This document shows, piece after piece, positions 10,205-59,515 of a stretch of 64,000 bases of DNA. The stretch comes from Chamaelirium japonicum. Taxonomy: Eukaryota > Streptophyta > Magnoliopsida > Liliales > Melanthiaceae. Each line of letters begins with the position of its first letter. Within the stretch, counting starts at the first letter, position 1. The notes beneath the pieces were generated by a model. It ran no database searches. It was not told where the DNA came from and saw nothing but the letters and a program-made list of their open reading frames with translations. The stretch spans positions 1,116,001-1,180,000 of the forward strand of contig CANTAL010000027.1 of assembly GCA_947650365.1 (NCBI GenBank). Reading direction: 5' to 3'. Both the position numbers and the translations under genes were made by a program.

Positions 10205-11504
10205 CGCACAATCTATTCTAATTCATTCGTACGATCCATTCTAATTTCTTAGCATGATCCATTATAATTCATTCGTACAGTTCATTCTTTTTCATTCGTA
10301 CGATCCATTCTTACTCATTCGTACGATCCATTCTAATTCATTCGCACGAATGTATCCATTCTAATTCATTCGTACGATCCATTCTAATTCATTCGCACGA
10401 TCCATTCTAATTCATTCATACGATCCATTCTAATTCATTCGTACGATCCATTCTAATTTATTCGCACGATCCATTCTAATTCATTCATACGATCCATTCT
10501 AATTCATTCATACAATCCATTCTAATTCTTTCACTCTAATGTATCCATTCAAATTCATTCGTACGATCCAATCTAATTCCTTCGTATGATCCATTCTAAT
10601 TCATTCGCACGAATGTATCCATTCTAATTCATTCGTACGATCCATTCGAATTCATTCATACGATCCATTCTAATTCATTCATAAGAACCATTCTAATTCA
10701 TTCGCACGAATGTATCCATTCTAATTTATTCGCACGATCCTTTCTAATTCATCCGCACAATCTATTCTAATTCATTCGTACGATCCATTCTAATTCATTA
10801 GCATGATCTATTCTAATTCATTCGTACGATCTATTCTATTTCATTCGTACGAGCCATTCTTACTCATTAGCACAATCCATTCTAATTCATTCGCACGATC
10901 CATTCTAATTCGTTCATACGATCCATTCTAATTCATTCATACAATCCATTCTAATTCTTTCGCACGAATGTATCCATTCTAATTCATTCGTACGATCCAC
11001 CCTAATTCCTTCGTATGATCCATTCTAATTCATTCGCACGAATGTATCCATTCTAATTCATTTGTACGATCCATTCGAATTCATTCATACGTTCTATTCT
11101 AATTCATTCATACGATCCATTCTAATTCATTCGCACGAATGTATCCATTCTAATTCATTCGCACGAATGTATCCATTCTAATTCATTCGTACGATCCATT
11201 CTAATTCATTCGCATGATCTATTCTAATTCATTCGTACGATCCATTCTAATTCATTAGCACGATCCATTCTAATTCATTCGTACGATCCATTCTATTTCA
11301 TTCGTACGATCCATTCTTACTCATTCGTACGTTCCATTATAATTCATTCGCACGAATGTATCCATTCTCGTACGATCCATTCAAATTCATTCGTACGATC
11401 CATTCTAATTCATTCGTACGATCCATTCTAATTCATTCGCACGATCCATTCTAATTCGTTCGCACAATCTATTCTAATTCATTCGTAATTCATTCGCACG
11501 ATCA

Positions 11505-11598
11505 TTCAGGTGTTTAGGTTGTGGCCTCAGACTTTGTATTTGGTTGAATACAAAGGTGCACCTTTGAATGTTAGTTGATCGTGGGGAGACCCTGTGTG
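11505..11598 (-). other. Element E, copy 1a, full length, reverse
   Basis: Read on the minus strand, the element runs from ACACAGGGTCTCCCCACG through AACATTCAAAGGTGCACC to CTAAACACCTGAATGATCG. It matches the 54.8-kb copy end to end with a few substitutions. It contains the 16-base perfect palindrome CAAAGGTGCACCTTTG (11551-11566) and an adjoining hairpin, CTTTGTATT with AATACAAAG around a six-base loop. Function unknown. Confidence 0.85.
11551..11566. other. Perfect 16-bp palindrome in E copy 1a
   Basis: CAAAGGTGCACCTTTG equals its own reverse complement. It overlaps a stem-loop (11530-11553) formed by CTTTGTATT and AATACAAAG, so CAAAG/CTTTG pairings alternate three times and could extrude as a cruciform. 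Confidence 0.9.
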
Positions 11599-11613
11599 AT
11601 CCATTCTAATTTA

Positions 11614-11677
11614 TTCAAAGGTGCACCTTTGTATTCAACCAAATACAAAGTCTGAGGCCGCAACGTAAACTCCTGAA
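11614..11677 (+). other. Element E, copy 1b, truncated
   Basis: Forward E, starting at TTCAAAGGTGCACC directly after 14 bases of satellite, so it lacks the ACACAGGGTC...CAACTAAC head. It keeps the palindrome (11616-11631) and the tail CTGAGGCCGCAACG...CCTGAATG, then passes into R satellite. Confidence 0.85.
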
Positions 11678-11703
11678 TGATTGTGCGAACGAATTACGAA
11701 TGA

Positions 11704-12673
11704 AGTAGAATGTATCGTGCGAATGAATTAGAATGGATCGTACGAATGAATTAGAATGGATCGTGCGAATGAATTAGAATGGATCGTGCGAATGAATTAG
11801 AATGGATCATACGAATGAATTAGAATGGATCGTACGAATGAATGGATCGTATGAATGAATTAGAATGGATACATTCGTGCGAATGAATTAGAATGGATCG
11901 TACGAATGAGTAAGAATGGATCGTACGAATGAAATAGAATGGATCATATGAATGAATTAGAATGGATCATGCGAATGAATTCGATTGGATCATGCGAATG
12001 AATTAGAATGGATTGTACGAATGAGTAAGAATGGATCGTACGAAAGAAATAGAATGGATCGTATGAAATGATTTAGAAATGGATCGTGCGAATAAGGATA
12101 CATTCGTGCGAATGAATTAGAATGGATCGTACGAATGAGTAAAAATGGATCGTACGAATGAAATAGAATGGATCGTACGAATGAATTAGAATTGATCGTG
12201 CGAATGAATTAGATTGGATCGTGCGAATGAATTAGATTGGATCGTACGAATGAATTAGAAAGGATATATTCGTGCGAATGAATTAGAATGGATCGTATGA
12301 ATGAATTAGAATCGATCGTATGAATGAATTCGAATGGATCGTACGAATGAATTTGAATGGATATATTCGTGCGAATGAATTAGAATGGATCATACGAAGG
12401 AATTAGAGTGGATCGTACGAATGAATTAGAATGGATACATTCGTGCAAAAGAATTAGAATGGATTGTATGAATGAATTAGAATGGATCATATGAATGAAT
12501 TAGAATGGATCGAGCGAATGAATTAGAATGATCATACGATGAATTAGAATGGATCGTATGAATGAATTCGAATGGATCGTACGAATGAATTAGAATGGAT
12601 ACATTCGTGCGAATGAATTAGAATGGATCATACGAAGGAATTAGAATGGATAGTACGAATGAATTAGAATGGA
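11704..12673 (-). repeat. Satellite block, R orientation
   Basis: R units beginning at island 1. The first 200 bp are close to consensus. Further right there are GAGTAAGAATGG and GAAATAGAATGG units, the GGAATTAGAGTGG module followed by a 28-mer, and a repeat of that string at about 12590-12660. The block ends at GGATCCATTC. Confidence 0.9.
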
Positions 12674-13050
12674 TCCATTCTATTCTAATTCATTCGCACG
12701 ATCCATTCTAATTCATTCATACGATCCATTCTAATTCATTCATACAATTTATTGTAATTCTTTTACACGAATGTATCCATTCTAATTCATTCGTACGATC
12801 CACCCTAATTCCGTCGTATGATCCATTCTAATTCATTCATACGATCCATTCTAATTCATTCGCACGTATGTATCCATGGGAATGAATCCATTCTAATTCA
12901 TTCGTACGATCTATTCTAATTCATTCGTACGATCCATTCTAATTCATTTGCATGATTTATTCATACGATTCATTCTAATTCATTCGCACAATCCATTCTA
13001 ATTCATTCGCACGATTCATTCGTATGATCCATTCTAATTCATTCGCATGA
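12674..13050 (+). repeat. Short satellite block, F orientation
   Basis: F units including TTTTACACGAATGT, the CCACCC module and a run of units with partly deleted cores (GCATGATTTATTCATACGATTC) at about 12950. That run matches 240-310 at the left end of the window, so this segment is a second copy of that region. Confidence 0.88.
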
Positions 13051-13919
13051 ATGGAATGAATTAAAATGGATACATTCGTGCGAATGAATTAGAATGGATC
13101 GTATGAATGAATTAGATTGGATCGGAATGGTTCGTACGAATGAATTAGAATGGATACATTCGTGCGAATGAATTAGAATGGATCGTATGAATGAATTAGA
13201 ATGGATCGTATGAAGGAATTAGAATGGATCGTACGTATGAATTAGAATGGATACATTCATGGGAATGAACTAGAATGGATCGTATGAAGGAATTAGAATG
13301 GGTCATACGAATGAAATAGAATGAATCGTGTGAATGAATTAGAATGGATCGTACGAATGAATTAGAATGGATTGTATGAATGAATTAGAATGGATCGTAT
13401 GAATGAATTAGAATGGATCGTGCGAATGAATTAGAATGGATCGTAAGAATGAATTAGAATGGATACATTCGTGCGAATGAATTAGAATGGATCGTACGAA
13501 TGAGTAAGAATGGATCATAAGAATGAAATAGAATGGATCGTACGAATGAATTAGAATGGATCGTGCTAATGAATTAGAGTGGCTCGTACGAATGAATTAG
13601 AATAGATTGTGCGAATGAATTATAATGGATCTTACAAATGAATTAGAATGGATACATTCGTGCGAATGAATTAGAATGGATCGTATGAATGAATTAGATT
13701 GGATCTTATGAATGAATTAGAATGGATCGTACGTATGAATCAGAATGGTTACATTCATGGGAATGATCTAGAATGGATCGTACGAAGGAATTAGAATGGA
13801 TCATACGAACAAAATAGAATGGATCGTACAAAGAAATTAGAATGGATCGTACGTTATGAATGAATTAGAATGGATCGTACGTATGAATTAGAATGGATCG
13901 TACGAAGGAATTAGAAGGG
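13051..13919 (-). repeat. Satellite block, R orientation
   Basis: R units. The first 250 bp repeat the R block at 345-600 (both have the unusual GATTGGATCGGAATGG join). Two copies of the ACATTCATGGGAATG module (about 13250 and 13750) are followed by CGAAGG linkers. A rare ACGAACAAAATAG unit at about 13806 recurs at about 17016. Confidence 0.88.
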
Positions 13920-14390
13920 ATCCATTCCAATTCATTCTAATTCATTCGTATGATCCATTCTAATTCATTCATACGATCCATTCTAATTCATTCATACGAT
14001 ACAATCTAATTCATTCATACGATCCATTCTTATTCATTCGCACGAATGTATCCATTCTAATTCATTCGTACAATCGATTCTAATTCATTCGCATGATCCA
14101 ATCTAATTCATTCACACGATCCATTCTAATTCATCATTCGCACAATCCATTCTAATTCATTCGTACGATCCATTCTAATTCATTAGCACGATCCATTCTA
14201 ATTCATTCGTATGATCCATTCTATTTCTTTCTTACGATCCATTCTTACTCATTCATACGATCCACTCTAATCCATTCGCACGAATGTATCGATTATAATT
14301 CATTCGTACGATCCATTCTTATTCATTCACACGATCCATTATAATCCATTCATACTATCTATTCTAATTCATTCGTACAATCCATTCTAT
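13920..14390 (+). repeat. Satellite block, F orientation, inside the 3.2-kb duplication
   Basis: F units bounded on the left by GGATCC and on the right by TCTATAGA. It contains ACAATCGATTC, a CATCATTCGCACAATCC junction unit, an ATTAGCAC linker, and the TATTTC / CTTACTC pair. Confidence 0.9.
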
Positions 14391-17158
14391 AGAATGGATA
14401 CATTCATGGGAATGAATTAGAATCGATCGTGCGAAGGAATTAGAATGGATCATACAAATGAATTAGAATGGATCGTATGAATGAATTCGAATGGATCGTA
14501 CGAATGAATTAGAATAGATTGTTCGAATAAATTAGAATGGATCGTACGAATGAATTAGAATGGATACATTCGTGCGAAAGAATTAGAATGGATTGTATGA
14601 ATGAATTAGAATGGATCGTGCAAATGAATTAGAATGGATCGTGCGAATGAATTAGAATGGATCGTACGAATGACTTAGAATAGATTGTGCGAATAAATTA
14701 GAATGGATCGTACGAATGAATTAGATTGGATACATTCGTGCGAATGAATTAGAATGGATCGTATGAATGAATTAGAATGGATCGTATGAATGAATTCGAA
14801 TGGATCGTGCGAATGAATTAGAATAGATACATTCGTGCGAATGAATTAGAATGGATCATACGAAGGAATTAGGGTAGATCGTACGAATGAATTAGAATGG
14901 ATACATTCGTGCGAAAGAATTAGAATGGATTGTATGAATTAATTAGAATGGATCGTATGAATGAATTAGAATGGATCGTGCGAATGAATTAGAATGGATC
15001 GTGCTAATGAATTAGAATGGATCGTACGAATGAATTAGAATAGATTGTGCGAATGAATTAGGATGGATCGTACGAATGAATTAGAATGGATCGTATGAAT
15101 GAATTAGAATGGATCGTGCAAATGAATTAGAATGAATCGTACGAATGAATTAGATTGGATACATTCGTGCGAATGAATTAGAAAGGATCGTACGAATAAG
15201 TAAAAATGGATCGTACAAATGAAATAGAATGGATCATACGAATGAATTAGAATGGATCGTGCTAATGAATTAGAATGGATCGTACGAATGAATTAGAATA
15301 GATTGTGCGAATGAATACATTCGTGCTAATGAATACATTCGTGCGAATGAATACATTCGTGCGAATGAATACATTCGTGCGAATGAATTAGAATGGATCG
15401 TATGAATGAATTAGAATGGATAGTATGAATGAATTAGAATGGATCGTATGAATGAATTCGAATGGATCGTACGAATGAATTAGAATGGATACATTCGTGC
15501 GAATGAATTAGAATGGATCATACGAATGAAATAGAATGTATCCATTCTAATTCATTCATAGAATGGATCGTACGATGGAATTAGAATGGACCGTACGAAT
15601 GAATTAGAATGGATCGTACGAATGAATTAGAATGGATCGTGTGAATGAATTAGATTGGATCGGGTGAATGAATTAGAATGGATCGTACAAATAAATTAGA
15701 ATGGATACATTCGTGCGAATGAATTAGAATGGATCGTATGAATGAATTAGAATGAATCGTATGAATGAATTCGAATGGATCGTACGAATGAATTAGAATG
15801 GATCGTGCGAATGAATTAGAATGGATCGTACGAATGAATTAGAATGGATCGTATGAATGAATTCGAATGGATCGTACGAATGAATTCGAATGGATCGTGC
15901 GAATGAATTAGAATGGATCGTAGGAATGAATTAGAATGGATCGTAGGAATGAATAAGAATGGATCGTATAAATGAATTCGAATGGATCGTACGAATGAAT
16001 TAGAATGGATACATTTGTGCGAATGAATTAGAATGGATCATACGAAGGAATTAGGGTTGTTCATACGAATGAATTAGAATAGATACATTCGTGCGAAAGA
16101 ATTAGAATGGATTGTATGAATGAATTAGAATGGATCGTATGAATGAATTAGAATGGATCGTGCGAATGAATTAGAATGGATCGTACAAATGAATTAGAAT
16201 GGATCGTATGAATGAATTAGAATGGATCATTCGAATGAATTAGAATGGATCGTACGAAAGAATTAGAATGGATACATTCGTGCGAATGAATTAGAATGGA
16301 TCGTACGAATGAGTAAGAATGGATCGTACGAATGAAATAGAATGGATCGTACAAATGAATTAGATTGGATCGTGCTAATGAATTAGAATGGATCATACGA
16401 ATGAATTAGAATAGATTATGCGAATGAATTAGAATGGATCATACGAATGAATTAGAATGAATACATTCGTGCGAATGAATTAGAATGGATCGTATGAATG
16501 AATTAGATTGGATCGTATGAATGAATTAGAATGGATCGTTCGAATGACTTAGAATGGATCGTACGAATGAATTAGAATGCATACATTCGTGCAAATGAAT
16601 TAGAATGGATCGTACGAATGAGTAAAAATGGATCGTACGAATGAAATAGAATGGATCGTACGAATGAATTAGAATGGATCGTGCTAATGAGTTAGAATGG
16701 ATCGTACGAATGAATTAGAATAGATTGTGCGAATGAATTAGAATAGATCATACGAATGAATTAGAATGGATACATTTGTACGAATGAATTAGAATGGATC
16801 GTATGAATAAATTAGATTGGATCGTATGAATGAATTAGAATGGATCGTACGTATGAATTAGAATGGATTCATTCATGGGAATGAATTAGAATGGATCGTA
16901 CGAAGGAATTCGAATGGATCATACGAATGAAATAGAATGGATCGTACGAAGGAATTAGAATGGATCGTACGAAGATATTAGAATGGATCGTACGAAGGAA
17001 TTAGAATGGATCATACGAACAAAATAGAATGGATCGTACGAAGGAATTAGAATGGATCATACATTATGAATGAATTAGAATGGATCGTACGTATGAATTA
17101 GAATGAACACATTCATGGGAATGAATTAGAATGGATCGTACGAAGGAATTAGAAGGGA
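14391..17158 (-). repeat. Satellite block, R orientation
   Basis: R units with many 28-mers and GGAATTAGGGT modules. It contains a run of four 18-bp units (15309-15380) and a one-unit flip to F at about 15540-15556. The right end has several CGAAGG-linked units and the GAACAAAATAG unit. Confidence 0.92.
15309..15380 (-). repeat. Four tandem 18-bp short units
   Basis: Four adjacent copies of GAATGAATACATTCGTGC (the second begins TAATG). The unit is the 28-mer minus 10 bp of core. The matching place in the right copy of the 3.2-kb duplication has one copy (18586-18603), and so does 63802-63819, so the run expanded locally. Confidence 0.93.
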
Positions 17159-20100
17159 TCCATTCCAATTCATTCTAATTCATTCGTACGATCCATTCTA
17201 ATTCTAATTCATTCGCACGAATGTATCCATTCTAATTCATTCGTACGATCCATTCTAATTTATTCGCACGAATGTATCCATTCTAATTCATTCGTACAAT
17301 CGATTCTAATTCATTCGCATGATCCAATCTAATTCATTCGCACGATCCATTCTAATTCATCATTCGCACAATGCATTCTAATTCATTCGTATGATCCATT
17401 CTAATTCATTAGCACGATCCATTCTAATTCATTCGTATGATCCATTCTATTTCTTTCGTACGATCCATTCTTACTCATTCGTACGATCCATTCTAATACA
17501 TTCGCATGAATATATCCATTCTAATTCATTCGTATGATCCATTCTAATTCGTTCGCACGATCCATTATAATCCATTCATACTATCTATTCTAATTCATTC
17601 GTACGATCCATTCTATAGAGTGGATACATTCATGGGAATGAATTAGAATCGATTATGCGAAGGAATTAGAATGGATCATACGAATGAATTAGAATGGATC
17701 GTATGAATGAATTCGAATGGATCGTACAAATGAATTAGAATAGATTGTTCGAATGAATTAGAATGGATCGTACGAATGAATTAGAATGGATACATTCGTG
17801 CGAAAGAATTAGAATGGATTGTATGAATGAATTAGAATGGATCGTGCAAATGAATTAGAATGGATCGTGCGAATGAATTAGAATGGATTGTACGAATGAC
17901 TTAGAATAGATTGTGCGAATGAATTAGAATGGATCGTACGAATGAATTAGAATGGATACATTTGTGCGAATGAATTAGAATGGATTGTATGAATGAATTA
18001 GAATGGATCGTATGAATGAATTCGAATGGATCGTGTGAATGAATTAGAATGGATACATTCGTGCGAATGTATTAGAATGGATACATTCGTGCGAATGAAT
18101 TAGAATGGATCATACGAAGGAATTAGGGTGGATCGTACGAATGAATTAGAATGGATACATTCATGCGAAAGAATTAGAATGGAATGTATGAATTAATTAG
18201 AATGGATCGTATGAATGAATTAGAATGGATCCTGCGAATGAAATAGAATAGATCGTACGAATGAAATAGAATAGATCGTACGAATGAATTAGAGTGGATC
18301 GTGCTAATGAATTAGAATGGATCGTACGAATGAATTAGAATAGATTGTGCGAATGAATTAGAATGGATCGTATGAATGAATTAGAATGGATCGTGCGAAT
18401 GAATTAGAATGGATCGTACGAATGAATTAGAATGGATACATTCGTGCGAATGAATTAGAATGGATCGTACGAATAAGTAAGAATGGATCGTACGAATAAG
18501 TAAGAATGGATCGTACGAATGAATAAGAATGGATCGTGCTAATGAATTAGAATGGATCGTACGAATGAATTAGAATAGATTGTGCGAATGAATACATTCG
18601 TGCGAATGAATTAGAATGGATCATATGAATGAATTAGAATGGATAGTATGAATGAATTAGAATGGATCGTATGAATGAATTCGAATGGATCGTATGGATG
18701 AATTAGAATAGATACATTCGTGCGAATGAATTAGAATGGATCGTACGAATAAAATAGAATGTATCCATTCTAATTCTAATTCATTCATAGAATGGATCGT
18801 ACGAAGGAATTAGAATGGACCGTATGAATGAATTAAAATAGATCGTACGAATGAATAAGAATGGATCGTGTGAATGAATTAGATTAGATCGTGTGAATGA
18901 ATTAGAATGGATCGTACGAATAAATTTGAATGGATACATTCGTGCGAATGAATTAGAATGGATCGTATGAATGAATTAGAATGGATCGTATGAATGAATT
19001 CGAATGGATCGTACGAATGAATTAGAATGGATCGTGCGAATGAATTAGAATGGATCGTACGAATGAATTCGAATGGATCGTACAAATGCATTAGAATGGA
19101 TCGTGCGAATGAATTAGAATGGATCGTAGGAATGAATTAGAATAGATCGTATGAATGAATTCGAATGGATCGTACGAATGAATTAGAATGGATACATTTG
19201 TACGAATGAATTAGAATGGATCATACGAAGGAATTAGGGTGGTTCGTACGAATGAATTAGAATGGATACATTCGTGCGAAAGAATTAGAATGGATTGTAT
19301 GAATGAATTAGAATGGATCGTATGAATGAATTAGAATGGATCGTGTGAATGAACTAGAATGGATCGTACAAATGAATTAGAATAGATCGTATGAATGAAT
19401 TAGAATGGATCGTGCGAATGAATTAGAATGGATCGTACGAAAGAATTAGAATGGATACATTCGTGCGAATGAATTAGAATATCTCGTACGAATGAGTAAG
19501 AATGGATCGTACGAATGAAATAGAATGGATCATACGAATGAATTAGAATGGATCGTGCTAATGAATTAGAATGGATCGTACGAATGAATTAGAATAGATT
19601 ATGCGAATGAATTAGAATGGATCATACGAATGAATTAGAATGGATACATTCGTGCGAATGAATTGGAATGGATCGTATGAATGAATTAGATTGGATCGTA
19701 TGAATGAATTAGAATGGATCGTTCGAATGACTTAGAATGGATCGTACGAATGAATTAGAATACATATATTTGTGCGAATGAATTAGAATGGATCGTACGA
19801 ATGAGTAAGAATGGATCGTATGAATGAAATAGAATGGATCGTACGAATGAATTAGAATGGATCGTGCTAATGAATTAGAATGGATCGTACGAATGAATTA
19901 GAATAGATTGTGCGAATGAATTAGAATAGATCATACAAATGAATTAGAATGGATACATTCGTACGAATGAATTAGAATGGATCGTATGAATGAATTAGAT
20001 TGGATCGTATGAATGAATTAGAATGGATCGTACGTATGAATTAGAATGGATACATTCATGGGAATGAATTAGAATGGATCGTACGAAGGAATTAGAATGG

Positions 20101-20160
20101 ATCATACGAATGAAATAGAATGGATCGTACGAAGGAATTAGAATGGATCGTACGAAGGAA
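17152..20160. repeat. 3.2-kb composite duplication, right copy
   Basis: It repeats the left copy from the GAAGGGATCCATTCC start through the TCTATAGA turn (about 17617), the one-unit flip (about 18768-18790), GTTCGAATGACTTAG (19724) and the ACATTCATGGG / CGAAGG string. It diverges after about 20150. The outer edge is approximate. Confidence 0.87.
17159..17616 (+). repeat. Satellite block, F orientation, inside the 3.2-kb duplication
   Basis: It has the same unit order as 13920-14390, including ACAATCGATTC, CATCATTCGCACAATG and TATTTC / CTTACTC. It has one extra 28-mer at the left. The right turn reads TTCTATAGAGTGG, one base off the perfect palindrome seen at 14390. Confidence 0.9.
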
Positions 20161-22515: not shown

Positions 22516-23645
22516 GATCGTACGTACGATCCATTCTAATTCATTCATACGATCTATTCTAATTCATTCGCATGAATGTATCCATTCTAATTCATTCGTA
22601 GGATCCATTCTAATTCATTCGCACAATCTATTCTAATTCATTCGTACGATCCATTCTAATTCATTCGCACAATCCATTCTAATTCATTCGTACGATCCAT
22701 TCTAATTCATTCGCATGAATCTATCCATTCTAATTCATACGTACGATCCATTCTTACTCATTCGTATGATCCATTCTAATTCATTCGCACGATCCATTCT
22801 AATTCATTCGTACGATCCATTCTAATTCATTCGCACGAATGTATCCATTCTAATTCATTCGTACGATCCATTCGAATTCATTCGTATGATCCAATCTAAT
22901 TCATTCGCACGATCCATTCTTATTTATTCGTACGATCCATTGTATTTCATTCGTATGATCCATTCTTACTCATTCGTACGATCCATTCTAATTCATTCGT
23001 ACGATTCATTCTTACTGATTCATACGATCCATTCTAATTCATTCTAATTCGAATTCATTCATACCATCTATTCTAATTCATTCGCACGATCCATTCTAAT
23101 TTATTCATACGATCCATTCTAATTCATTCGTACGATCCATTCTAATTCATTCACACGATCCATTCTAATTCATTCATACGATTCATTCTAATTCATTCAT
23201 ACAATCTATTCGAATTCTTTCGCACGAATATATCCATTCTAATTAATTCGTACAATCCACCCTAATTCCTTCGTATGATCCATTCTAATTCATTCGCACG
23301 AATGTATCCATTCTAATTCATTCGTACGATCCATTCGAATTCATTCATGCGATCCATTCTAATTCATTCGCACGATCCATTCTAATTCATTCATACGATC
23401 GATTCTAATTCATTCGTACGATCCATTCTAATTCATTCGCACGATCCATTCGAATTCATTCATACGATCCATTCTAATTCATTCATACGATCCAGTCTAA
23501 TTCATTCGCACGAATGTATATATTCTAATTCATTCGTACGATCCATTCTAATTCATTCGTACGATCCATTCTAATTCATTCGCACGATCCATTCTAATTC
23601 ATTTGCACGATCCATTCTAATTCATTCATACAATCCATTATAATT

Positions 23646-26230: not shown

Positions 26231-26382
26231 TATCCATTCTAATTCATTCGTATGATCCATTCTAATTCATTTGCACAATCTATTCTAATTCATTAGTATG
26301 ATCCATTCTAATTCATTCGCACGATCCATTCTAATTCATTTGCACGATCCATTCTAATTCATTCATACAATCCATTCTAATT

Positions 26383-45920: not shown

Positions 45921-46228
45921 ATCCATTCTAATTCATTCGCATATATGTATCCATTCAAATTAATTCGTACGAACCATTCTAATTCATTCGTACGATCCAT
46001 TCTAATTTATTCGTACGATCCATTCTAATTCATTTGCACGATCCATTCTAATTCATTCGCACGAATGTATCCATTCTAATTCATTCGCATGAATGTATCC
46101 ATTCTAATACATTCGTACGATCCATTCTAATTCATTCGCACGATCCAATCTAATTCATTCGCATGATCCATTCTAATTCATTCGTACGATCTATTCTATT
46201 TCATTCGTATGATCCATTCTATTTCATT
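45921..46228 (+). repeat. Short satellite block, F orientation
   Basis: F units with three 28-mers close together (one with GCATATATGT), an ATCCAATC unit, and a TATTTC unit at the right. It turns at CATTTGTGCGAATG. Confidence 0.88.
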
Positions 46229-46924: not shown

Positions 46925-49900
46925 TCCATTCTAATTCCTCCGTACGATCCATTCTAATTCATTCCCATGAATGTTTCCATTCTAATTCCTACGTACGATC
47001 CATTCTAATTCATTTATAACGTACGATCCATTCTAATTTCTTCGTACGATCCATTCTATTTCATTCGTATGACCCATTCTAATTCCATCGTACGATCCAT
47101 TCTAATTCATTCTCATGAATGTATCCATTCTAATTCATACGTACGATCCATTCTAATTCATTCATACGATCCAATCTAATTCATTCATACGATCCATTCT
47201 AATTTATTCGCATGAATGTATCCATTCTAATTCATTCGTACGATCTATTTTAATTCATTCGCACAATCTATTCTAATTCATTCGTATGATACATTCTAAT
47301 TCATTAGCACGATCCATTCTAATTCATTCGTACGATCCATTCTATTTCATTCGTACGATCCATTCTTACTCATTCGTACGATCCATTCTAATTCATTTGC
47401 ACGATCCATTCTAATTCATTCATACAATCCATTTTAATTCATTAGCACGATCCATTTTAATTCATTCGTACGATCCATTCTATTTCATTCGTACGATCCA
47501 TTCTTACTTATTCATACGATCCATTCTAATTCATTCGCACGAATGTATCCATTCTAATTCATTCGTACGATCCATTCTAATTTATTCGCACGATCCATTC
47601 TAATTCATTCGTAAAATCCATTTAATTCATTCATACAATCCATTCTAATTCTTTAGCACGAATGTATCCATTCTAATTCATTCATATGATCTATTCTAAT
47701 TCATTCGCATGATCCATTCAAATTCATTCATACGATCCATTCTAATTCATTCGTATGATCCATTCTAATTCATTCGCACAATCCATTCTAATTCCTTCGT
47801 ACGATCTATTCAAATTTCTTCGTACGATCCATTCTATTTCATTCATATGATCCATTCTAATTCCTTCGTATGATCCATTCTAATTCATTCCCATGAATGT
47901 ATCTATTCTAATTCATACGTACGATCCATTCTAATTTATTCATACGATCCAATCAAATTCATTCATACGATCCATTCTAATTCATTCGTACGATCCATTC
48001 TAATTCATTCGCACAATCTATTCTAATTCATTCGTACGACCCATTCTAATTCATTAGCACGATCCATTCTAATTCATTCGTACGATCCATTCAAATTCAT
48101 TCGTACGATCCATTCTATTTCATTAGCACGATCCATTCTAATTCATTCGTACGATCTATTCTAATTCATTAGCACGATCCATTATAATTCATTCGCACGA
48201 ATGTATCCATTCTAATTCATTCGTACGATCCATTCTAATTCATTCGCACGTTCCATTCTAATTCATCCATACGATCCATTCTAATTCATTCATATAATCC
48301 ATTCTAATTGTTTTGCACGAATGTATCCATTCTAATTCATTCGTACAATCTATCCTAATTCCTTCGTATGATCCATTCTAATTCATTCGCACGAATGTAT
48401 CCATTCTAATTCATTCGTACGATCCATTGGAATTCATTCATACGATCTATTTTAATTCATTCATACGATCCATTCTAATTTATTTGTACGATCAATTCTA
48501 ATTCATTCGCACGAATGTATCCATTCTAATTCATTCGCACGATCCATTCTAATTCATTCGCACAATCTATTCTAATTCATTCGTACGATCCATTCTAATT
48601 CATTAGCACGATCCATTTTAATTCACTCGTACGATCCATTCTATTTCATTCGTACGATCCATTCTTACTCATTAGCACAATCCATTCTAATTCATTCGCA
48701 CTATCCATTCTAATTCATTCATACGATCCATTCTAATTAATTTATACAATCCATTCTAATTCTTTCGCACGAATGTATCCATTCTAATTCATTCGTACGA
48801 TCCACCCTAATTCCTTCGTATGATCCATTCTAATTCATTCGCACGAATGTATCCATTCTATTTCATTCGTACGATCCATTCTTACTCATTCGTACGATCC
48901 ATTCTAATTTATTCGCACGAATGTATCCTCATTCGCACGATCCATTCTAATTCATTTGCACGATCCATTCTAATCCATTCATACAATCCATTCTAATTCT
49001 TTCGCACGAATGTATCCATTCGAATTCATTCATACAATCCACCCAAAATCCTTCGTATGATCCATTCTAATTCATTCGCACAATCTATTCTAATTCATTC
49101 GTACGATCCATTCTAATTCATTCGCACGATCCATTCTAATTCATTTGCAAGATCCATTGTAATTCATTCATAAAATCCATTCTAATTCATTCGTACGATC
49201 CATTATAAATCCTTCGTACGATCCATTCTAATTCTTTCGTACGATCCATTCTATTTCATTCGTATGATCCATTCTAATTCATTCGTACGATCCATTCTAA
49301 TTGATTCCTATGAATGTATCCATTCTAATTCATACGTACGAAACATTCTAATTCATTCATATGATCCAATCTAATTCATTTATACGATCCATTCTAATTC
49401 ATTCGCATAAATGTATCCATTCTAATTCATTCATACGATCCATTCTAATTCATTCGCATAATCTATTCTAATTCATTTGTACGATCCATTCCAATTCATT
49501 CGTACGATCCATTCTATTTCATTCGTACGATCCATTCTTACTCATTCGTACGATCCATTCTAATTCATTCGCACGAATGTATCTATTCTAATTCATTCGT
49601 ACGATCCGTTCTACTTCATTCGCACGATCCAATCTAATTCATTTGCACGATCCATTCTAATTCATTCGTACGATCCATTCTAATTCATTTATACGATCCA
49701 TTCTAATTCATTCGCACGAATGTTTCCATTCTAATTCATTCTAATTCCTTCGTACGATCCATTCATACGATCCATTCTAATTCATTCGTAGAATCTATTC
49801 TAATCCATTCGCATGATCCATTCTAATTCATTCATACGATCCATTCTAATTCATTCATACAATCCATTCTAATTCTTTCGCAAGAATGTATCCATTTTAA

Positions 49901-50352
49901 TTTATTCGCACGATCCATTCTATTTCATTCGTACGATCCATTCTATTTCATTCGTACGATCCATTCTTACTCATTCATATGATCCATTCTAATTCATTTG
50001 CACGAATGTATCCATTCTAATTCATTCGTACGATCCATTCTAATTCATTCGCACGATCCATTCTAATTCATTCATACGATCCATTCTAATTCATTCGTAC
50101 GATCCATTCTAATTCATTCGCACAATCTATTCTAATTCATTCGTACGATCCATTCTAATTCATTAGCACGATCCATTCTAATTCATTAGTACGATCCATT
50201 CTATTTCATTCATAAGATCCATTCATACTCATTCGTACGATCCATTCTAATTCTAATTCATTCGTACGATCCATTCTAATTCATTAGCACGATCCACTCT
50301 AATTCATTCGTACGATCCATTCTATTTTATTCGTACGATCCATTCTTACTCA
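46925..50352 (+). repeat. Satellite block, F orientation
   Basis: About 3.4 kb of F units. The left 100 bp repeat 2625-2740 (CCATGAATGT, a TACGTACG linker, then ATAACGTACG in place of ATAATGTACG). The string CTTACTCATTAGCACAATCC at about 48664 and the CCACCC module after it match about 10858-11010 over roughly 300 bp. One unit is cut at about 48927 (GTATCCTCATTCG). Confidence 0.92.
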
Positions 50353-50655
50353 ATGAATTAGAATGGATCGTGTGAATGAATTAGAATGGATCATACGAAT
50401 GAATTTGAATGGATACATTCGTGCGGATGAATTAGAATGGATCGTACGAATGAGTAAGAATGGATCATACGAATGAAATAGAATGGATCGTACGAATGAA
50501 TTAGAATGATTCGTGCTAATGAATTAGAATGGATAGTATGAATGAATTAGAATAGATTATGTGAATGAATTAGAATGTATCGTACGAATGAATTAGAATT
50601 GATACATTCGTGCGAAGGAATTAGAATGGATCGTACGAATGGATCATACGAAGGC
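50353..50655 (-). repeat. Short satellite block, R orientation
   Basis: R units. The left join, CTTACTCAATGAATTAG, has no clear palindrome. The right join, CATACGAAGGCGTATGATCC, is an imperfect palindrome. Confidence 0.88.
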
Positions 50656-51566
50656 GTATGATCCATTCTAATTCATTCGCACAAATGTATCCATTCAAAT
50701 TCACTCGTACGATCCATTCAAATTCATTCATACGATCCATTCTAATTCATTCATACGATCCATTCTAATTCATTCGCACGAATTTATCCATTCTATCTTA
50801 TTCGTACGATCCATTCCGATCCAATCAAATTCATTCATACGATCCATTCTAATTCATTTGTACGATACATTCTTACTCGTTCGTACGATCCAATCTAATT
50901 TATTCGCACGAATGTATCCCTTCTAATTCATTCGTACGATCCATTCTAATTCATTCGCATGATCCATTCTAACTCATTCATACGATCCATTCTAATTTAT
51001 TCGTATGATCCATTCTAATTCATTCGCACGATCCGTTCTAATTCATTCATACATTCCATTCTAATTCATTCATACAATCCATTCTAATTCATTCGCACGA
51101 ATGTATGCATTCTAATTCATTCATATGATCCATTCTAATTCCTTCGTACGATCCATTCGAATTCATTCAAACGATCCATTCTAATTCATTCATACGATCC
51201 ATTCTAATTCATTCGCACAAATATATCCATTCTAATTCATTCGTACGATCCATTCTAATTCATTCGCACGATCCAATCTAATTCATTCGCACGATCCATT
51301 CAAATTCATCATTCGCACGATCTATTCTAATTCATTCGTACGATCCATTCTAATTCATTAGCACGATCCATTCTAATTCATTCGTACGATCCATTCTATT
51401 TCATTCGTACGATCCATTCTTACTCATTCGTATGATCCATTCTAATTCATTCGCACGAATGTATCCATTCTAATTCATTCGGCCAATCCATTCTAATTCA
51501 TTCACACGATCCATTCATATTCATTCATACGATCCATTCTAATTCATTTGTACGAACAATTCTATA
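50656..51566 (+). repeat. Satellite block, F orientation
   Basis: F units with one truncated join at about 50817 (ATTCCGATCCAATC). The right 300 bp, including CATCATTCGCACG, ATTAGCAC, the TATTTC/CTTACTC pair and the turn TCTATAGAATGG, match the F blocks ending at 14390 and 17616. Confidence 0.9.
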
Positions 51567-52507
51567 GAATGGATACATTCATGGGAAGGAAGTAGAATGG
51601 ATCATACGAAGGAATTAGAATGGATCATACGAATGAAATAGAATGGATCGTACGAAGGAATTATAATGGATCATACGAAGGAATTAGAATGGATCGTACA
51701 AAGGAATTAGAGTGGATCGTACGAATGAATTAGAATGGATACATTCGTGCTAAAGAATTAGAATGGATTGTATGAATGATTTAGAATGGATCGTGCAAAT
51801 GAATTAGAATGGATTGTGCGAATCAATTAGAATGGATCGTACGAATGAATTAGAATAGATTATGCGAATGAATTTGAATGGATCGTACGAATGAATTAAA
51901 ATGGATACATTCGTGCGAATGAATTAGAATGGATCGTATGAATGAATTAGAATGGATCGTATGAATGAATTCGAATTGATCATACGAATGAATTAGAATG
52001 GATACATTCGTGCGAATGAATTAAAATGGATCATACGAAGAAACTAGGGTGGATCGTACGAATGAATTAGAATGGATACATTCGTGCGAAAGAATTAGAA
52101 TGGATTGTATGAATGAATTAGAATGGATCATGCAAATAAATTAGAATGGATCGTGCGAATGAGGATACATTCGTGTGAATGAATTAGAATGGATCATACG
52201 AATGAGTAAGAATGGATCGTACGAATGAAATAGAATAGATCGTACGAATGAATTAGAATGGATCGTGCGAATGAATTAGATTGGATTGTGCGAATGAATT
52301 AGAATGGATTGTATGTATGAATGAATTAGATTGGATTATGCGAATGAATTAGAATGGATTGTGCGAATGAATTGGAATGGATCGTATGAATGAATTCGAA
52401 TGGATCGTACGTATGAATGAATTAGAATAGATCGTTTGAATGAATTAGAATGGATCGTATGAATGAATTAGAATGGATCGTGCGAATGAATTAGAATGGA
52501 TCTTGCT
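51567..52507 (-). repeat. Satellite block, R orientation
   Basis: R units starting with ACATTCATGGG as at 14391 and 17617, followed by four CGAAGG-type units. Unusual GTATGTATGAATGAATTAG (about 52310) and GTACGTATGAATG (about 52408) linkers are present. It turns to F at CTTGCTAATTCATTC. Confidence 0.9.
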
Positions 52508-54790
52508 AATTCATTCATACGATCCATTCTAATTCAATCGTACGATCCATTCTAATTCATTCTCACAATCTATTCTAATTCATTCGTACGATCCATTCTA
52601 ATTCATTCGCACGATCCATTCTAATTCATTTGCACGATCCATTCTAATTCATTCATACAATCCATTCTAACTCTTTCGCACGATTGTATCGATTCTAAAT
52701 CATTCGTACGATCCACCCTAATTCCTTCGTATGATCCATTCTAATTCATTCGTACGATCAATTCTAATTCGTTAGCATGATCCATTCTAATTCATTCGTA
52801 CGATCCATTCTAATTCATTCGCACGATCCATTCTAATTCATTCGCACAATCTATTCAAATTCATTCGCACGATCCATTCTAATTCATTCATACGATCCAT
52901 TCTAATTCATTCATATAATCCATTCTAATTCATACGATCTATTCTAATTCATTCACATGATCCATTCTAATTCATTCACACGATCCATTCTAATTCATTC
53001 ATACGATCCATTCTAATTCTTTCGCACGAGTGTATCCATTCAAATTCATTCATACGATCCACCCTAATTCCTTCATATGATCCATTCTAATTCATTCGCA
53101 CGAATGTATCTATTCCAATTCATTCGTATGATCCATTTGAATTCATTCATACGATCCATTCTAATTCATTCATACGTATCCATTCTAATTCATTCGTCGT
53201 ACGATCCAATCTAATTCATTAGCACGATCCATTCTAATTCATTCGTACGACCCATTCTATTTTATTCGTACGATCCATTCTTACTCATTCGTACGATCCA
53301 TTCTAATTCATTCGCACGAATGTATCCATTCTAATTCATTCGTACGATCCATTCTAATTCATTCGCACGATCCATTCTAATTCATTCATACGATCCATTC
53401 TAATTCATTCGTACAATCCATTCTAATTCATTCGCACAATCCACTCTAATTCATTCATACGATCCACTCTAATTCATTCATACAATCCATTCTAATTCTT
53501 TCGCACGAATGTAGCCATTCTAATTCATTTGTACGATCCACCCTAATTCCTTTGTATGATCCATTCTAATTCATTCATACGATCCATTCTAATTCATTCA
53601 CACGATCCATTCTAATTCATTCATACGATCCATTCTAATTCATTCGAACAATCCATCTAATTCATTTGCACAATCTATATAGTTCATTCGTACGATCCAT
53701 TCTAATTCATTAGCACGATCCTTTCTAATTCATTCGTATGATCCATTCTATTTCATTCGTACGATCCATTCTTACTCATTTGTACGATCTATTCTAATTC
53801 TAATTCATTAGCACGATCCATTCTAATTCATTCGTACGATCCATTCTATTTCATTCGTACGATCCATTCTAATTCATACGATCCATTCTAATTCATTTGT
53901 ACGATCCATTCTAATTCATTCATACAATTCATTCTAATTCTTTTGCACGAATGTATCAATTCTAATTCATTAGCACGATCATTCTAATTCATTTCATTCG
54001 TATGATCCATTCTAATTCATTCTAATTCATTCATACGATCCATTCTAATTCATTCATACGATCCATTCTAATTCATTCGCACGAATGTATCCATTCTAAT
54101 TCATTCGTACGATCCACCCTAATTCCTTGGTATGATCCATTCTAATTCACTCGCACGAATGTATCCATTCTAATTCATTCGTATGATCCATTCGAATTCA
54201 TTCATACGATCCATTCTAATTTATTCATACGATCCATTCTAATTCATTCGCACGAATGTATCCATTCTAATTCATTCGTACGATCCATTCTAATTCATTC
54301 GCACAATCTATTCTAATTCATTCGTACGATCCATTCTAATTCTTTCGCACGATCCATTCTAATTCATTTGTACGATCCATTCTAATTCATTCATACAATC
54401 CATTCTAATTCTTTTGCACGAATGTATCCATTCCAATTCATTCGTACGATCCATTCTAATTCCTTCGTACCATCCATTCTAATTCATTCCCATGAATGTA
54501 TCCATATAATTCATACGTACGATCCACGACCCATTCTAATTCATTCATAAAATCCATTCTAATTCTTTCGCACGAATGTATCAATTCTAATTCATTCGTA
54601 TGATCCACCCTAATTCCTTCTTATGATCCATTCTAATTCATTCACACGAATGTATCCAATCTAATTCATTTATACGATCCATTCGAATTCATTCATACGA
54701 TCCATTCTAATTCATTCATACGATCCATTCTATTTCATTCATGCGATCCATTCTTACTCATTCGTACGATCCATTCTAATTCATTCGTAG
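52508..54790 (+). repeat. Satellite block, F orientation, left of island 2
   Basis: F units with CCACCC modules at about 52711, 53058, 53536, 54114 and 54606. Many units are irregular or cut, for example CATTCGTCGTACG (53189), a core missing a T near 53655, ATTTCATTCG (53993) and ATCCACGACCC (54523). The irregular units increase toward the island. Confidence 0.9.
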
Positions 54791-54911
54791 AATCACACAG
54801 GGTCCCCCCACGATCAACTAACGTTCAAAGGTGCACCTTTCTATTCAACCAAATACAAAGTCTGAGGCCGCAACCTAAACACCTGAATGATCGTGCGAAT
54901 GAATTACGAAT
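54791..54911 (+). other. Island 2: element E, full length
   Basis: Satellite ends at CATTCGTAGA. E runs from ATCACACAGGG (about 54792) to CACCTGAATG (54889), then enters R satellite through ATCGTGCGAATGAATTACG. The head has six C in GGTCCCCCCACG where copy 1a has CTCCCC. The palindrome (54826-54841) is broken at its last base. It lies at an F-to-R switch, in the same order as islands 1 and 3. There is no coding potential. Origin unknown. Confidence 0.9.
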
Positions 54912-55273
54912 GAACTAGAATAGATTCTGCGAATGAATTAGAATGGAACGTGCGAATGAATTAGAATTGATCGTACAAATGAATTAGAATGGATACATTC
55001 GTGCGAATGAATTAGAATGGATCGTACAAATGAATTAGAATGGATCGTACGAATGAATTAGAATGGATCGTACGAATGAATTAGAATGGATCGTATGAAT
55101 GAATTAGAATGGATCGTGCGAATGAACTAGAATGGATCATACGAATGAATTAGAAAGGATCGTGCGAATGAATTAGAATGGATACATTCGTGCGAATGAA
55201 TTAGAATGGATCGTACGAATGAATTAGAATGGATCGTATGAATGATCGTATGAATGAATTAGAATGGATCGTA
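54912..55273 (-). repeat. Short satellite block, R orientation, right of island 2
   Basis: R units, nearly all close to consensus, with two standard 28-mers. The turn to F is a double-palindrome string, GTACGTATCGTACGTATG. Confidence 0.9.
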
Positions 55274-58200
55274 CGTATCGTACGTATGATCCATTCTATT
55301 TCATTCATATGATCCATTCTTACTCATTCATACGATCCATTCTAATTCATTCGCACGATCCATTCTAATTCATTCATACGATCCATTCTAATTCATTCGT
55401 ACGATCCATTCTAATTCATTCGCACAATTTATACTAATTCATTCGTACGATCCATTCTAATTCATTAGCACGATCAATTCTAATTCATTCGTACGATCCT
55501 TTCTATTTCATTCGTACGATCCATTCTTACTCATTCGTACGATCCATTCTAATTCATTCCCATGAATGTATCCATTCTAATTCATTCGTACGATCCATTC
55601 TAATTCATTCGCACGATCCATTCTAATTCATTCGCACGATCCATTCTAATTCATTCGCACGAATGTATCTATTCTAATTCATTCGTACGATCCATTCTAA
55701 TTCATTCGCACAATCTATTCTAATTCATTCGTACGATCCATTCTCATTCATTCGCACGATCCATTCTAATTCATTTGCACGATCCATTCTAATTCATTCA
55801 TATAATCCATTCTAATTCTTTTGCACGAATGTATCCATTCTAATTCATTCGTACGATCCATTCTAATCCCTTTGTACGATCCATTCTATTTCATTCGTAT
55901 GATCCATTCTAATTCCTTCGTACGATCCATTCTAATTCATTCCCATGAATGTATCCATTCTAATTCATACGTACGATCCATTCTAATTCATTCATACGAT
56001 CCAATCTAATTCATTCATACGATCCATTCTAATTCATTCGCATGAATGTATCCATTCTAATTCATTCGTACGATCTATGATCCATTCTAATTCATTCGCA
56101 CAATCTATTCTAATTCATTCGCACGATCCATTCTAATTCATTAGCACGATCCATTCTAATTCATTCGTACGATCCATTCTATTTCATTCGTACTATCCAT
56201 TCTTACTTATTCGTACGATCCATTCTAATTCATTCACACGAATATATCCATTCTAATTTATTCGTACGATCCATTCTAATTCATTCACACGATCCATTCT
56301 AATTCATTTATACGATCCATTCCAATTCATTCGTACGATCCATTCTAATTCATTCACAAGATCCATTCTAATTCATTCATACGATCCATTCTAATTCATT
56401 CATACAATCCATTCTAATTCTTTCACACGAATGTATCCATTTTAATTCATTCGTACGATCCACCCTAATTCCTTCGTACGATCCATTCTAATTCCTTCGT
56501 ACGATCCATTCTATTTCATTCGTATGAATTCCTTCGTATGATCCATTCTAATTCTTTTCCATGAATGTATCCATTCTAATTCATACGTATGATCTATTCT
56601 AATTAATTCATACGATCCAATCTAATTCACTCATACGATCCATTCTAATTCATTTGCACGAATGTATCCATTCTAATTCATTCGTACGATCCATTCTAAT
56701 TCATTCGCACAATCTATTCTAATTCATTCGTACGATCCATTCTAATTCATTCGCACGATCCATTCTAATTCATTTGTACGATCCATTCTAATTCATTCAT
56801 ACAATCCATTCTAATTCTTTTGTACGAATGTATCCATTGTAATTCATTCGTACGATCCATTCTAATTCCTTTGTACGATCCATTCTAATTCCTTCGTACG
56901 ATCCATTCTAATTCATTCCCATGAATGTATCCATTCTAATTCATACGTACATTCCATTCTAATTCATTCATACGATCCAATCTAATTCATTCATACGATC
57001 CATTCTAATTCATTCGCACGAATGTATCCATTCTAATTCATTCTAATTCCTTCGTACGATCCATTCGTATGATCCATTCTAATTCTTTCGCACGATCCAT
57101 TCTAATTCATTCGTACAATCTATTCTAATTCATTCATACGATCCATTCTAATTCATTAGCACGATCCATTCTAATTCATTCGTACGATCCATTCTATTTC
57201 ATTCGTACGATCCAATCTTACTCATTCGTATGATCCATTCTAATTCATTTGCACGAATGTATCCATTCTAATTCACTCGTACGATCCATTCTAATTCATT
57301 CGCACGATCCATTCTAATTCATTCATACGATCCATTCTAGTTCATTCATACGATCCATTCTAATTCATTCGCACGAATGTATCCATTCTAATTCATTCGT
57401 ACGATCCATTCTAATTCATTCGCACAATCTATTCTAATTCATTCATAAGATCCATTCTAATTCATTCGCACGATCCATTCTAATTCATTTGCACGATCCA
57501 TTCTAATTCATTCATACAATCCATTCTTATCCATTCTAATTCATTCGCACGATCCATTCTAATTCCATTGTATGATCCATTCTTTTTCATTCGTATGATC
57601 CATTCTAATTCCTTCGTACGATCCATTCTAATTCATTTCCATGAATGTATCCATTCTAATTCATACGTACGATCCATTCTAATTTATTCATACGATCCAA
57701 TCTAATTCATTCAAACGATCCATTCTAATTCATTCGCACGAATGTATCCATTCTAATTAATTCGTACGATCCATTCAAATTGATTAGCACGATCCATTCT
57801 TATTCATTCATACGATCCATTCTATTTTATTTGTACGGTCCATTCTTACTCATTCGTACGATCCATTCTAATTCATTCGCACGAATGTATCCATTCTAAT
57901 TCATCGTACGATCCATTCTAATTCATTCGTACGAATGTATCCATTCTTATTCATTCGTACAAATGTATCCATTCTAATTCATTCGTACGATCCATTCTAA
58001 TTCATTCGTACGATCCATTCTAATTCATTCGCACGATCCATTCTAATTCATTAATACGATCCATTTTAATTCATTCATACAATCCATTCTAATTCTTTTG
58101 CACGAATGTATCCTTTCTAATTCCTTCGTACGATCCATTCTAATTCATTCGTACGATCCATTCTAATTCATTCATACCATCCATTCTAATTCATTCATAC

Positions 58201-59425
58201 GATCCATTCTAATTCATTCGTACGATCCATTCTAATTCATTCGCACGATCCATTCTAATTCATTCATATGATCCATTCTAATTCATTCATACAATCCATT
58301 CTAATTCATTCGCACGAATATATCCATTCTAATTCATTCGTACGATCCACCCTAATTCCTTTGTATGATCCATTCTAGTTTATTCGCACGAATGTATCCA
58401 TTGTAATTCATTCGTACAATCCATTCGAATTCATTCATACGATCCATTCTAAATCATTTATACGATCCATTCTAATTCATTCATATGATCCATTCTAATT
58501 CATTCGCCCGAATGTATTCATTCGCGCAATCTATTCTAATTCATTCGTATGATCCATTCAAATTCATTAGCACGATCCATTCTAATTTATTCGTACGATC
58601 CATTCTATTTCATTCATACGAATATATCCATTCTAATTCATTCATACGAATATATCCATTCTAATTCATTCATACGATCTATTCTAATTCATTCGCACGA
58701 TCCATTCTAATTCATTCGCACGATCCATTCTAATTCATTCGTACGATCCATTCTAATTCATTCGCATGATCCATTCTAATTGATTCGTACAATCTATTCT
58801 AATTCATTCGTAATTCATTCGCACGATCCATTCTAATTCATTTGTACGATCCATTCTAATTCATTCATACAATCCATTCTAATTCTTTTGCACGAATGTG
58901 TCCATTCTAATTCATTCGTACGATCCATTCCAATTCCTTCGTACGATCCATTCTAATTCCTTCGTACGATCCATTCTAATTCATTCCCATGAATGTATCC
59001 ATTCTAATTCATTTATACGATCCATTCTAATTCATTCGCACAATCTATTCTAATTCATTCGTACGATCCATTCTAATTCATTTGCACGATCCATTCTAAT
59101 TCATTCGTACGATCCATTCTATTTCATTCGTACGATCCATTCTTACTCATTCGTTCGATCCATTGTAATTCATTCGGACGATCCATTCTAATTCATTCAT
59201 ACGATCTATTATATTTCATTTGTACGATCCATTCTTACTTATTCGTACGATCCATTCTAATTCATTCGCACGAATGTATCCATTCTAATTCATTCGTACG
59301 ATCCATTCTAATTCATTCGCACGATCCATTCTAATTTATTCTAATTCATTCGCACAATCCATGGTAATTCATTCGTACGATCCATTCTAATTCATTCGCA
59401 CGATCCATTCTAATTCATTCTAATT
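55274..59425 (+). repeat. Satellite block, F orientation
   Basis: About 4.2 kb of F units. The module TTTTGCACGAATGT ... CCCATGAATGT ... ATACGTACG recurs at about 55820, 56560, 56820, 57600 and 58890, spaced several hundred bp apart. The 62-codon frame at 55821-56009 is this module translated; its near twin lies at 19995-20183 on the other strand. The block ends with lengthened CATTCTAATTCAA units at island 3. Confidence 0.93.
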
Positions 59426-59515
59426 CAACTAACGTTCAAAGGTGCACATTTGTATTCAACCAAATACAAAGTCTGAGGCCGCAACCTAAACACCTGAATG
59501 ATCGTGCGAATGAAT
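59426..59515 (+). other. Island 3: element E, head-truncated
   Basis: E begins at CAACTAACGTTC, so the ACACAGGGTC...GAT head is missing. It keeps the body and tail to CACCTGAATG and the usual passage ATCGTGCGAATGAATTAC into R satellite. The palindrome (59437-59452) has one change (GCACATTTG). The left join is to CATTCTAATT satellite, a different breakpoint from the other copies. Confidence 0.9.

What the first reader, a model, noticed from the sequence alone, without database searches (positions are those of the whole stretch)
11478..59515. One unknown element sits at three strand-switch points, always with the same end facing R satellite
The only non-satellite DNA in 64 kb is element E (about 100 bp). 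Its four copies lie in three islands (11.5, 54.8 and 59.4 kb), all exactly where the array turns from F to R. In every copy the tail CACCTGAATG passes into satellite through the same sequence, ATCGTGCGAATGAATTAC. The head end is joined to satellite at different points. A shared tail join with varying head joins suggests that E plus adjacent satellite was the original edge of the array, and that later inversions broke and rejoined the head side. Alternatively E is a hairpin that starts strand switching.
Basis: partly seen in the sequence, partly recalled or inferred. Interest (0 to 1): 0.85.

Follow-up and report, generated by a model that had tools for sequence, protein, structure and literature searches.

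The report
Captured fragment marks satellite strand-switch points
A short piece of foreign DNA caught in a plant's huge 23-base satellite was seen only at points where the satellite flips strand, but it looks like a fossil passenger copied along with a few old flip points rather than the thing that causes flipping.

Summary
The window (C39:1116001-1180000 of a 1.52 Gb assembly, judged a plant) is a 23-bp satellite that changes strand 43 times. Element E is its only non-satellite DNA and lies at 3 of 22 F-to-R and 0 of 21 R-to-F switches. Genome-wide the E core occurs 540 times; three centre types account for that number: D, two inverted E (177); H, one full E (100); S, one short E (87). All 55 scorable sampled centres are F-E-R. 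So "always at a switch" rests on one to three founding joins plus amplification, not on hundreds of events. E is not needed for switching: one E-free palindromic F-to-R switch occurs 30,282 times and an R-to-F switch at GGATCC 12,169 times, and single E folds no better than shuffles. The head half of E is related to a dispersed repeat. Best reading: a captured repeat fragment beside the satellite, rejoined head-to-head by break repair, then copied with large satellite blocks. Conserved inversion sites are known in Tribolium; a captured non-satellite spacer is the variant here.

The parts
11503..11597 (-). E, full-length copy (95 bp) of the dual centre D; type 'DR'
   Evidence: sequence read; dual pattern found 177 times genome-wide
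11598..11613 (.). about 16 bp of satellite sequence between the two E heads of the dual centre
   Evidence: sequence read; the same filler, with up to 4 mismatches over the 31-base word that holds it, in 30 of 30 sampled D centres
11614..11679 (+). E, head-truncated copy (66 bp) of the dual centre D; type 'DL', a clade of its own (30 of 30 DL, FastTree support 0.97)
11485..11502 (-). conserved tail join of the full copy to satellite
   Evidence: tail join with up to 3 mismatches 508 times genome-wide
11680..11697 (+). conserved tail join of the truncated copy (2 differences)
54795..54889 (+). E, full-length single copy; centre type H (E may reach up to 8 bp further left)
   Evidence: H head join 101 times genome-wide, one of them the non-satellite relative at C2:55.90 Mb
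54890..54907 (+). conserved tail join of H
59426..59500 (+). E, head-truncated single copy (75 bp); centre type S
   Evidence: S head join 87 times genome-wide
59501..59518 (+). conserved tail join of S
3969..11489 (-). F satellite arm left of the dual centre (7.5 kb)
   Evidence: segmentation
11695..12668 (+). R satellite arm right of the dual centre
   Evidence: segmentation
52496..54782 (-). F satellite arm left of H
   Evidence: segmentation
54896..55277 (+). short R arm right of H, then R-to-F switch
   Evidence: segmentation; the short R arm recurs in other H loci
55278..59420 (-). F arm between H and S (4.1 kb); H and S form one composite
   Evidence: segmentation; S lies 2-9 kb downstream on the same strand in 70 of 99 H
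59507..63993 (+). R satellite arm right of S
   Evidence: segmentation

Best explanation
E is a short fragment (about 95 bp) that became joined once to the 23-bp satellite. Its head half is related to a dispersed repeat family. Shown: the sampled E copies of every lineage carry the same tail join and the same unusual first satellite monomer, and the head joins are of three kinds (D, H, S), each putting satellite of the opposite orientation on the head side. Shown: these centres number about 364 and H and S mostly travel together. Inferred: breaks at or near the head of E were rejoined head-to-head, either to another E end (giving the inverted pair D) or to satellite ends (giving H and S), by microhomology end joining or fold-back template switching; H and S may instead be D after loss of one E copy. 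Inferred: the centres then spread as passengers of large satellite blocks through tandem amplification and exchange between chromosomes. E is a marker of a few old inversions, not the agent of strand switching, which often happens at self-complementary words of the monomer itself.
For: 540 E cores against 2x177 D + 100 H + 87 S = 541: little room for another large class. 55 of 55 scorable sampled centres are F-E-R. The consensus of E plus the first 48 bp of satellite in S differs from the full D copy at 1 of 120 sites, in H at 3 of 120; the truncated D copy differs at 10 of 120, 5 of them at its head junction. S follows H at about 5 kb on the same strand in 70 of 99 H. H(+) recurs 7 times along C39, with S in 6 and a D(-) upstream in 4, the window's own included. 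The head half of E aligns to non-satellite DNA at C2:55.90 Mb (36 of 44 aligned columns identical; partly selected by the search), and to a second unit there that the search had not selected (score 20 against a maximum of 16 in 500 shuffles); that repeat has 1684 first-look candidates in the genome, 40 of them scored. E-free switches at TCGTACGA (30,282) and GGATCC (12,169) dwarf E centres; the two patterns fell on switches in 6 of 6 and 17 of 17 cases in the window and 20 loci, which were chosen around E.
Against: No ancestral state was found: neither R-E-R (0 hits at 0-1 mismatch; none of the 11 hits at 2 mismatches or the 89 shown at 3 carries the E head word; 595 of 695 hits were not shown) nor an E edge with unique DNA. 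Arms of D are not symmetric above satellite background beyond about 50-100 bp, so a palindromic origin must be older than satellite turnover or short. The second half of E has no relative in the 1.1 kb read at C2:55.90 Mb. The mode of spread is inferred from spacing only; 29 of 99 H have no S at the usual distance.
Confidence: 0.7

Rival explanations
1. Only one founding inversion: D is ancestral, and H and S are D centres that lost the left E copy by a deletion across the centre, which is known to stabilise long palindromes (recalled).
For: E of H and S is nearly identical to the full copy of D, not to the truncated one. The word TAGAAT before the H head could be a remnant of the D filler with 4 bp lost.
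Against: The bases before the H head also fit the non-satellite relative at C2:55.90 Mb, though that place was found by a search with those bases. Left arms of H and S were not tested for descent from the left arm of D.
Confidence: 0.13
2. Centres are the loops of a foldback-type transposon whose arms are satellite.
For: Architecture F arm - loop - R arm on many chromosomes; known cases of foldback elements feeding satellites (Tetris, PMC4079207, passages read).
Against: No isolated copy outside satellite among the 55 centres scored; arms not symmetric above background in the 7 D and 11 S centres tested; the R-to-F junctions fall into at least 10 phase classes and carry no non-satellite island in the window.
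Confidence: 0.05
3. E centres are kept because the inversion site itself has a role, for instance as a cruciform or protein-binding site in heterochromatin.
For: D folds as one strand at -90.5 kcal/mol, z -21.5; conserved inversion sites in Tribolium were read that way by their authors (PMC13081366).
Against: The H and S centres of the window do not fold better than shuffles, while one of two plain satellite stretches does (z -3.09); more than 40,000 switches of two types have no E; clonal spread explains conservation.
Confidence: 0.06
4. E is an active insertion element that enters pre-existing switch points.
For: In the sample E is found only at switches.
Against: Same tail join and first monomer in all four lineages; three head joins account for about 364 centres; the other switches of the window show no E.
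Confidence: 0.03
5. Assembly or read artefact (fold-back chimeras).
For: Inverted repeats are prone to such artefacts (recalled).
Against: The same three junctions recur in about 364 places with differing substitutions, 13 contigs among those sampled; arms are diverged rather than identical.
Confidence: 0.03

Closest known systems
Macro-dyad symmetries with conserved inversion sites in Tribolium madens satellites (PMC13081366; passages incl. the abstract, and section 7 part 1 of 2 read)
   Same: Multi-kb satellite subarrays of opposite orientation; inversion sites fall into a few highly conserved types with thousands of copies, sequences from different contigs intermingled.
   Different: [quoted passage not shown] here the centres carry a non-satellite fragment, and the satellite monomer is 23 bp in what looks like a plant.
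Foldback transposon Tetris of Drosophila virilis (PMC4079207; passages read)
   Same: Tandem repeats in inverted arms around a middle domain; link between element and satellite.
   Different: Its complete copies have ends with 8-9 bp target-site duplications (9-10 bp in rearranged copies); no bounded copy was found here.
Helentron-type elements with central satellite-like repeats in oyster (PMC7492417; passages read)
   Same: Flanking sequence always in the same orientation to the repeats, read by its authors as a single event in repeat formation.
   Different: Those are bounded mobile units; here E lies inside long arrays and no bounded unit was found.
Fold-back templated inverted insertions at DNA breaks in yeast (PMC11724301; abstract and outline read)
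   Same: Microhomology-based fold-back gives short inverted duplications at a break; a possible source of D and of switches at palindromic words.
   Different: Events there are mostly 5-34 bp and observed directly; here the mechanism is inferred.

Membership tests
Satellite array with conserved inversion sites (macro-dyad type) | multi-kb subarrays in opposite orientation | tested here: met
   43 switches in 64 kb, segments from tens of bases to 7.6 kb
Satellite array with conserved inversion sites (macro-dyad type) | few inversion-site types, each in many near-identical copies | tested here: met
   D 177, H 100, S 87; mean within-type difference of the last 72 bp up to the tail 1.5-3.3 of 72
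Satellite array with conserved inversion sites (macro-dyad type) | inversion site built from the satellite itself, no extrinsic sequence | tested here: not met
   E is non-satellite; met for the E-free switches
Satellite array with conserved inversion sites (macro-dyad type) | pericentromeric position | not testable with these tools
   no centromere map for this assembly
Foldback transposon | inverted arms more alike than background | tested here: not met
   left-right scores: D 314-819, median 694 (n = 7 centres with pure arms), S 465-747, median 652 (n = 11), H none testable; random satellite pairs median 677, 90% point 737, maximum 1044 (n = 120)
Foldback transposon | bounded ends with target-site duplications | tested here: inconclusive
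   no bounded copy found to test; array ends seen in L043 look like LTR insertions into the array
Foldback transposon | copies dispersed outside satellite | tested here: not met
   all 55 scorable centres lie in satellite; so does the lone hit at C10:9.93 Mb; the sample is not random
Hairpin initiator of strand switching | present at most switches | tested here: not met
   3 of 22 F-to-R in the window; about 364 against 30,282 of one E-free type
Hairpin initiator of strand switching | single element folds better than shuffled sequence | tested here: not met
   z -0.23 and -1.02 for H and S of the window
Known structured RNA | Rfam match at gathering score | tested here: not met
   0 matches in L001, L043 and L059; the window itself was not scanned

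The most novel reading that the evidence does not exclude
Strand-switch centres carrying a captured non-satellite fragment are themselves units on which spread or selection acts: the inverted E pair forms a cruciform that seeds breaks and long-range copying, so satellite blocks with E centres outcompete others and jump between chromosomes.
Probability: 0.07. Interest if true: 0.7.

Novelty: new variant of a known kind. Interest (0 to 1): 0.4.

Why it matters
E works as a natural barcode inside otherwise anonymous satellite. Three inherited junctions, each in about ninety to a hundred and eighty copies, let one follow how blocks of a satellite that fills roughly 13% or more of this assembly multiply and move between chromosomes. 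The much larger E-free set shows that this satellite changes strand at self-complementary words of its monomer in tens of thousands of places, which makes the origin of inverted satellite subarrays testable with counts and raw reads.

Tried and rejected
Rejected: E as an LTR. Same-strand E pairs about 5 kb apart looked like two LTRs, but the DNA between them is satellite. Rejected: arm symmetry as a sign of a recent long palindrome (the first alignment, used free end gaps and was replaced). Rejected: origin of the satellite from the repeat family related to E (269 of 500 shuffles score as high). Rejected: E remnants at other switches of the window. Inconclusive: ancestral R-E-R. Led nowhere: printed satellite words in papers (four words, 0 papers); searches for a 23-bp or subtelomeric plant satellite and for inverted satellite arrays in plants (passages of PMC7004042 read, no match); Rfam. 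The species was not identified; 'plant' rests on the look of the LTR-type flanks and genome layout, recalled, not on a test.

Weak points of the sample: loci came from best or first-listed matches, so they are not a random draw. The 58 centres are distinct by sequence; one 'H' (L009) is a D cut by the locus end, and it also sits among the 16 H. Three of 58 were dropped from the orientation count because they lie near a locus end: L004 (D), L009, L036 (H). E tails with more than 5 mismatches are missed. Listings show at most 100 places, so D spacing used 100 of 177, and H used 99 of 100 after dropping the non-satellite hit. Genome counts stop at 3 mismatches.
Full report
What is there. The window is G000:C39:1116001-1180000, in an assembly of 1,518,659,071 bases. 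A segmentation by 8-mers of the 23-bp monomer (F = ATCCATTCTAATTCATTCGTACG, R = its complement) gives 22 F-to-R and 21 R-to-F changes and three non-satellite islands, each between F and R. The islands hold four copies of E. In the first island two copies lie head to head with about 16 bp of satellite between them; the second and third hold one copy each.

Genome-wide census. The tail word of E occurs 525 times with up to 3 mismatches, its reversed control 0. The E core occurs 540 times. The three head arrangements occur 177 times (D), 101 times (H; 100 after removing one non-satellite place) and 87 times (S). 2 x 177 + 100 + 87 = 541, so these three types account for the number of cores; I did not match every core to a centre one by one. 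The tail join with the next 23 bases occurs 508 times. Satellite monomers number 8,408,194 with up to 2 mismatches, about 193 Mb or 12.7% of the assembly at 23 bp each; scaled by the density in the window and 20 loci it would be nearer 360 Mb (extrapolation).

Orientation. In window and loci I found 58 centres distinct by sequence (30 D, 16 H, 12 S); one of the 16 H is a D cut by its locus end. Scored with 150 bp on each side, 55 are F-E-R (29 D, 14 H, 12 S), 0 are anything else, and 3 lie too near an end. F-E-R reads the same from either strand, so the rule is that satellite runs outward from E in the same sense on both sides. This looks overwhelming but is not independent evidence: the copies share junctions. 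Counting head joins, there are at most three events; if each join could have faced either orientation, three of three has a chance of 1 in 8.

Descent. One search compared 87 E copies (30 left and 29 right copies of D, 16 H, 12 S) over the last 72 bases up to the E tail plus 48 bases of satellite. The consensus of S differs from the full copy of D at 1 site and H at 3. The truncated D copy differs at 10, 5 of them at its head junction, and forms a clade of its own (FastTree support 0.97, 30 of 30); several of the deeper nodes have no support. In all four lineages the first monomer after E is shortened in the same way; in the window that shortened word (up to 1 mismatch) occurs 5 times, 4 of them beside E. 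The tail join is exact or 1 base off in 74 of 88 copies. So E plus at least the first monomer was inherited as a block, and the heads were joined later or differently.

Where E comes from. The H search returned one place without satellite, C2:55,902,085. There (L059) the head half of E aligns with 36 of 44 columns identical, a match partly forced by the search, and a second unit about 120 bp further on, which the search had not selected, scores 20 against a maximum of 16 in 500 shuffles. L059 belongs to a dispersed repeat with tandem subunits and 1684 first-look candidates, 40 of them scored. The second half of E is not matched in the 1.1 kb read. The satellite itself is not related to L059.

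Not a trigger. An E-free F-to-R switch centred on TCGTACGA occurs 30,282 times and an R-to-F switch at GGATCC 12,169 times, with up to 2 mismatches (the words are palindromes, so both strands give the same number). In the window plus 20 loci, chosen around E, these patterns fell on switches in 6 of 6 and 17 of 17 cases. TCGTACGA lies in the monomer and GGATCC arises where the GATC of R and F overlap, so a join or fold-back that uses shared words gives exactly these switches. Single E folds no better than its shuffles (z -0.23 and -1.02; plain satellite controls -1.07 and -3.09); D does because it is an inverted pair (z -21.5). The phases of switches lean to the TCGTACGA centre (9 of 31 distinct F-to-R junctions against 1.3 expected if all 23 phases were equal), but many junctions are related copies. 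These copies too may stem from few events; that was not tested.

Arms. The two sides of D are not more alike than random satellite beyond about 50-100 bp (7 D and 11 S centres with 1.2 kb of pure arms, no H). A palindrome, if D began as one, has been erased by satellite turnover, or the inverted part was short from the start.

Spread. S follows H about 5 kb further on the same strand in 70 of 99 H (median 4,966.5). On C39, H(+) recurs 7 times at intervals of about 150-330 kb, with S behind it in 6; a D(-) lies upstream in 4, the window's own D included. Where a listed D lies within 120 kb of an H (42 of 99), the nearest is upstream on the opposite strand in 24, upstream on the same strand in 13, downstream on the same strand in 5. 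The D list held 100 of 177, so this is partial. The simplest account is amplification of large blocks and exchange between chromosomes; it is inferred from positions only.

Compared with what is known. Tribolium madens has megabase satellites in inverted subarrays whose inversion sites fall into a few types with thousands of near-identical copies, built from satellite subunits (PMC13081366: passages and the first part of section 7). The case here is the same kind with a difference: one set of inversion sites carries a captured non-satellite fragment. Membership among foldback transposons fails on arm similarity and on dispersed copies in the sample. I found no paper on this satellite in the searches made, which cover only the held library.

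Verdict. The feature is best read as a passenger and a useful marker; the wider fact, a satellite of about 193 Mb or more that changes strand at palindromic words of its monomer in tens of thousands of places, is the more general subject.

Noticed in passing
window 1-64000: E-free switches gather at self-complementary words: F-to-R at TCGTACGA and R-to-F at GGATCC, with tens of thousands of copies genome-wide.
   Followed up: partly
L043:1600-1620 and 7705-7725: The array ends flush against an LTR-like end on one side and an LTR-like start on the other at C4:5.04 Mb, so nested retrotransposons seem to interrupt the satellite (by eye).
   Followed up: no
L047:6875-7225 and L048:3470-3820: Two 351-bp non-satellite inserts in F satellite at C10:60,889,374 and 60,894,469, 350 of 351 bases identical and each at the same distance behind an H centre: a recent 5.1 kb duplication that carried H and insert together.
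   Followed up: partly
window 15296-15388: A unit GAATACATTCGTGCGAAT with a near-palindrome inside forms a small tandem run of its own, 5.2 copies of 18 bp.
   Followed up: no
L059:1-1100: Dispersed repeat with tandem subunits (a 71-bp unit by TRF; longer spacing of matches), 1684 first-look candidates in the genome; nature unknown.
   Followed up: partly
window about 58815 (minus strand): One copy of the shortened E-adjacent monomer without E beside it, about 0.6 kb from the S centre.
   Followed up: no
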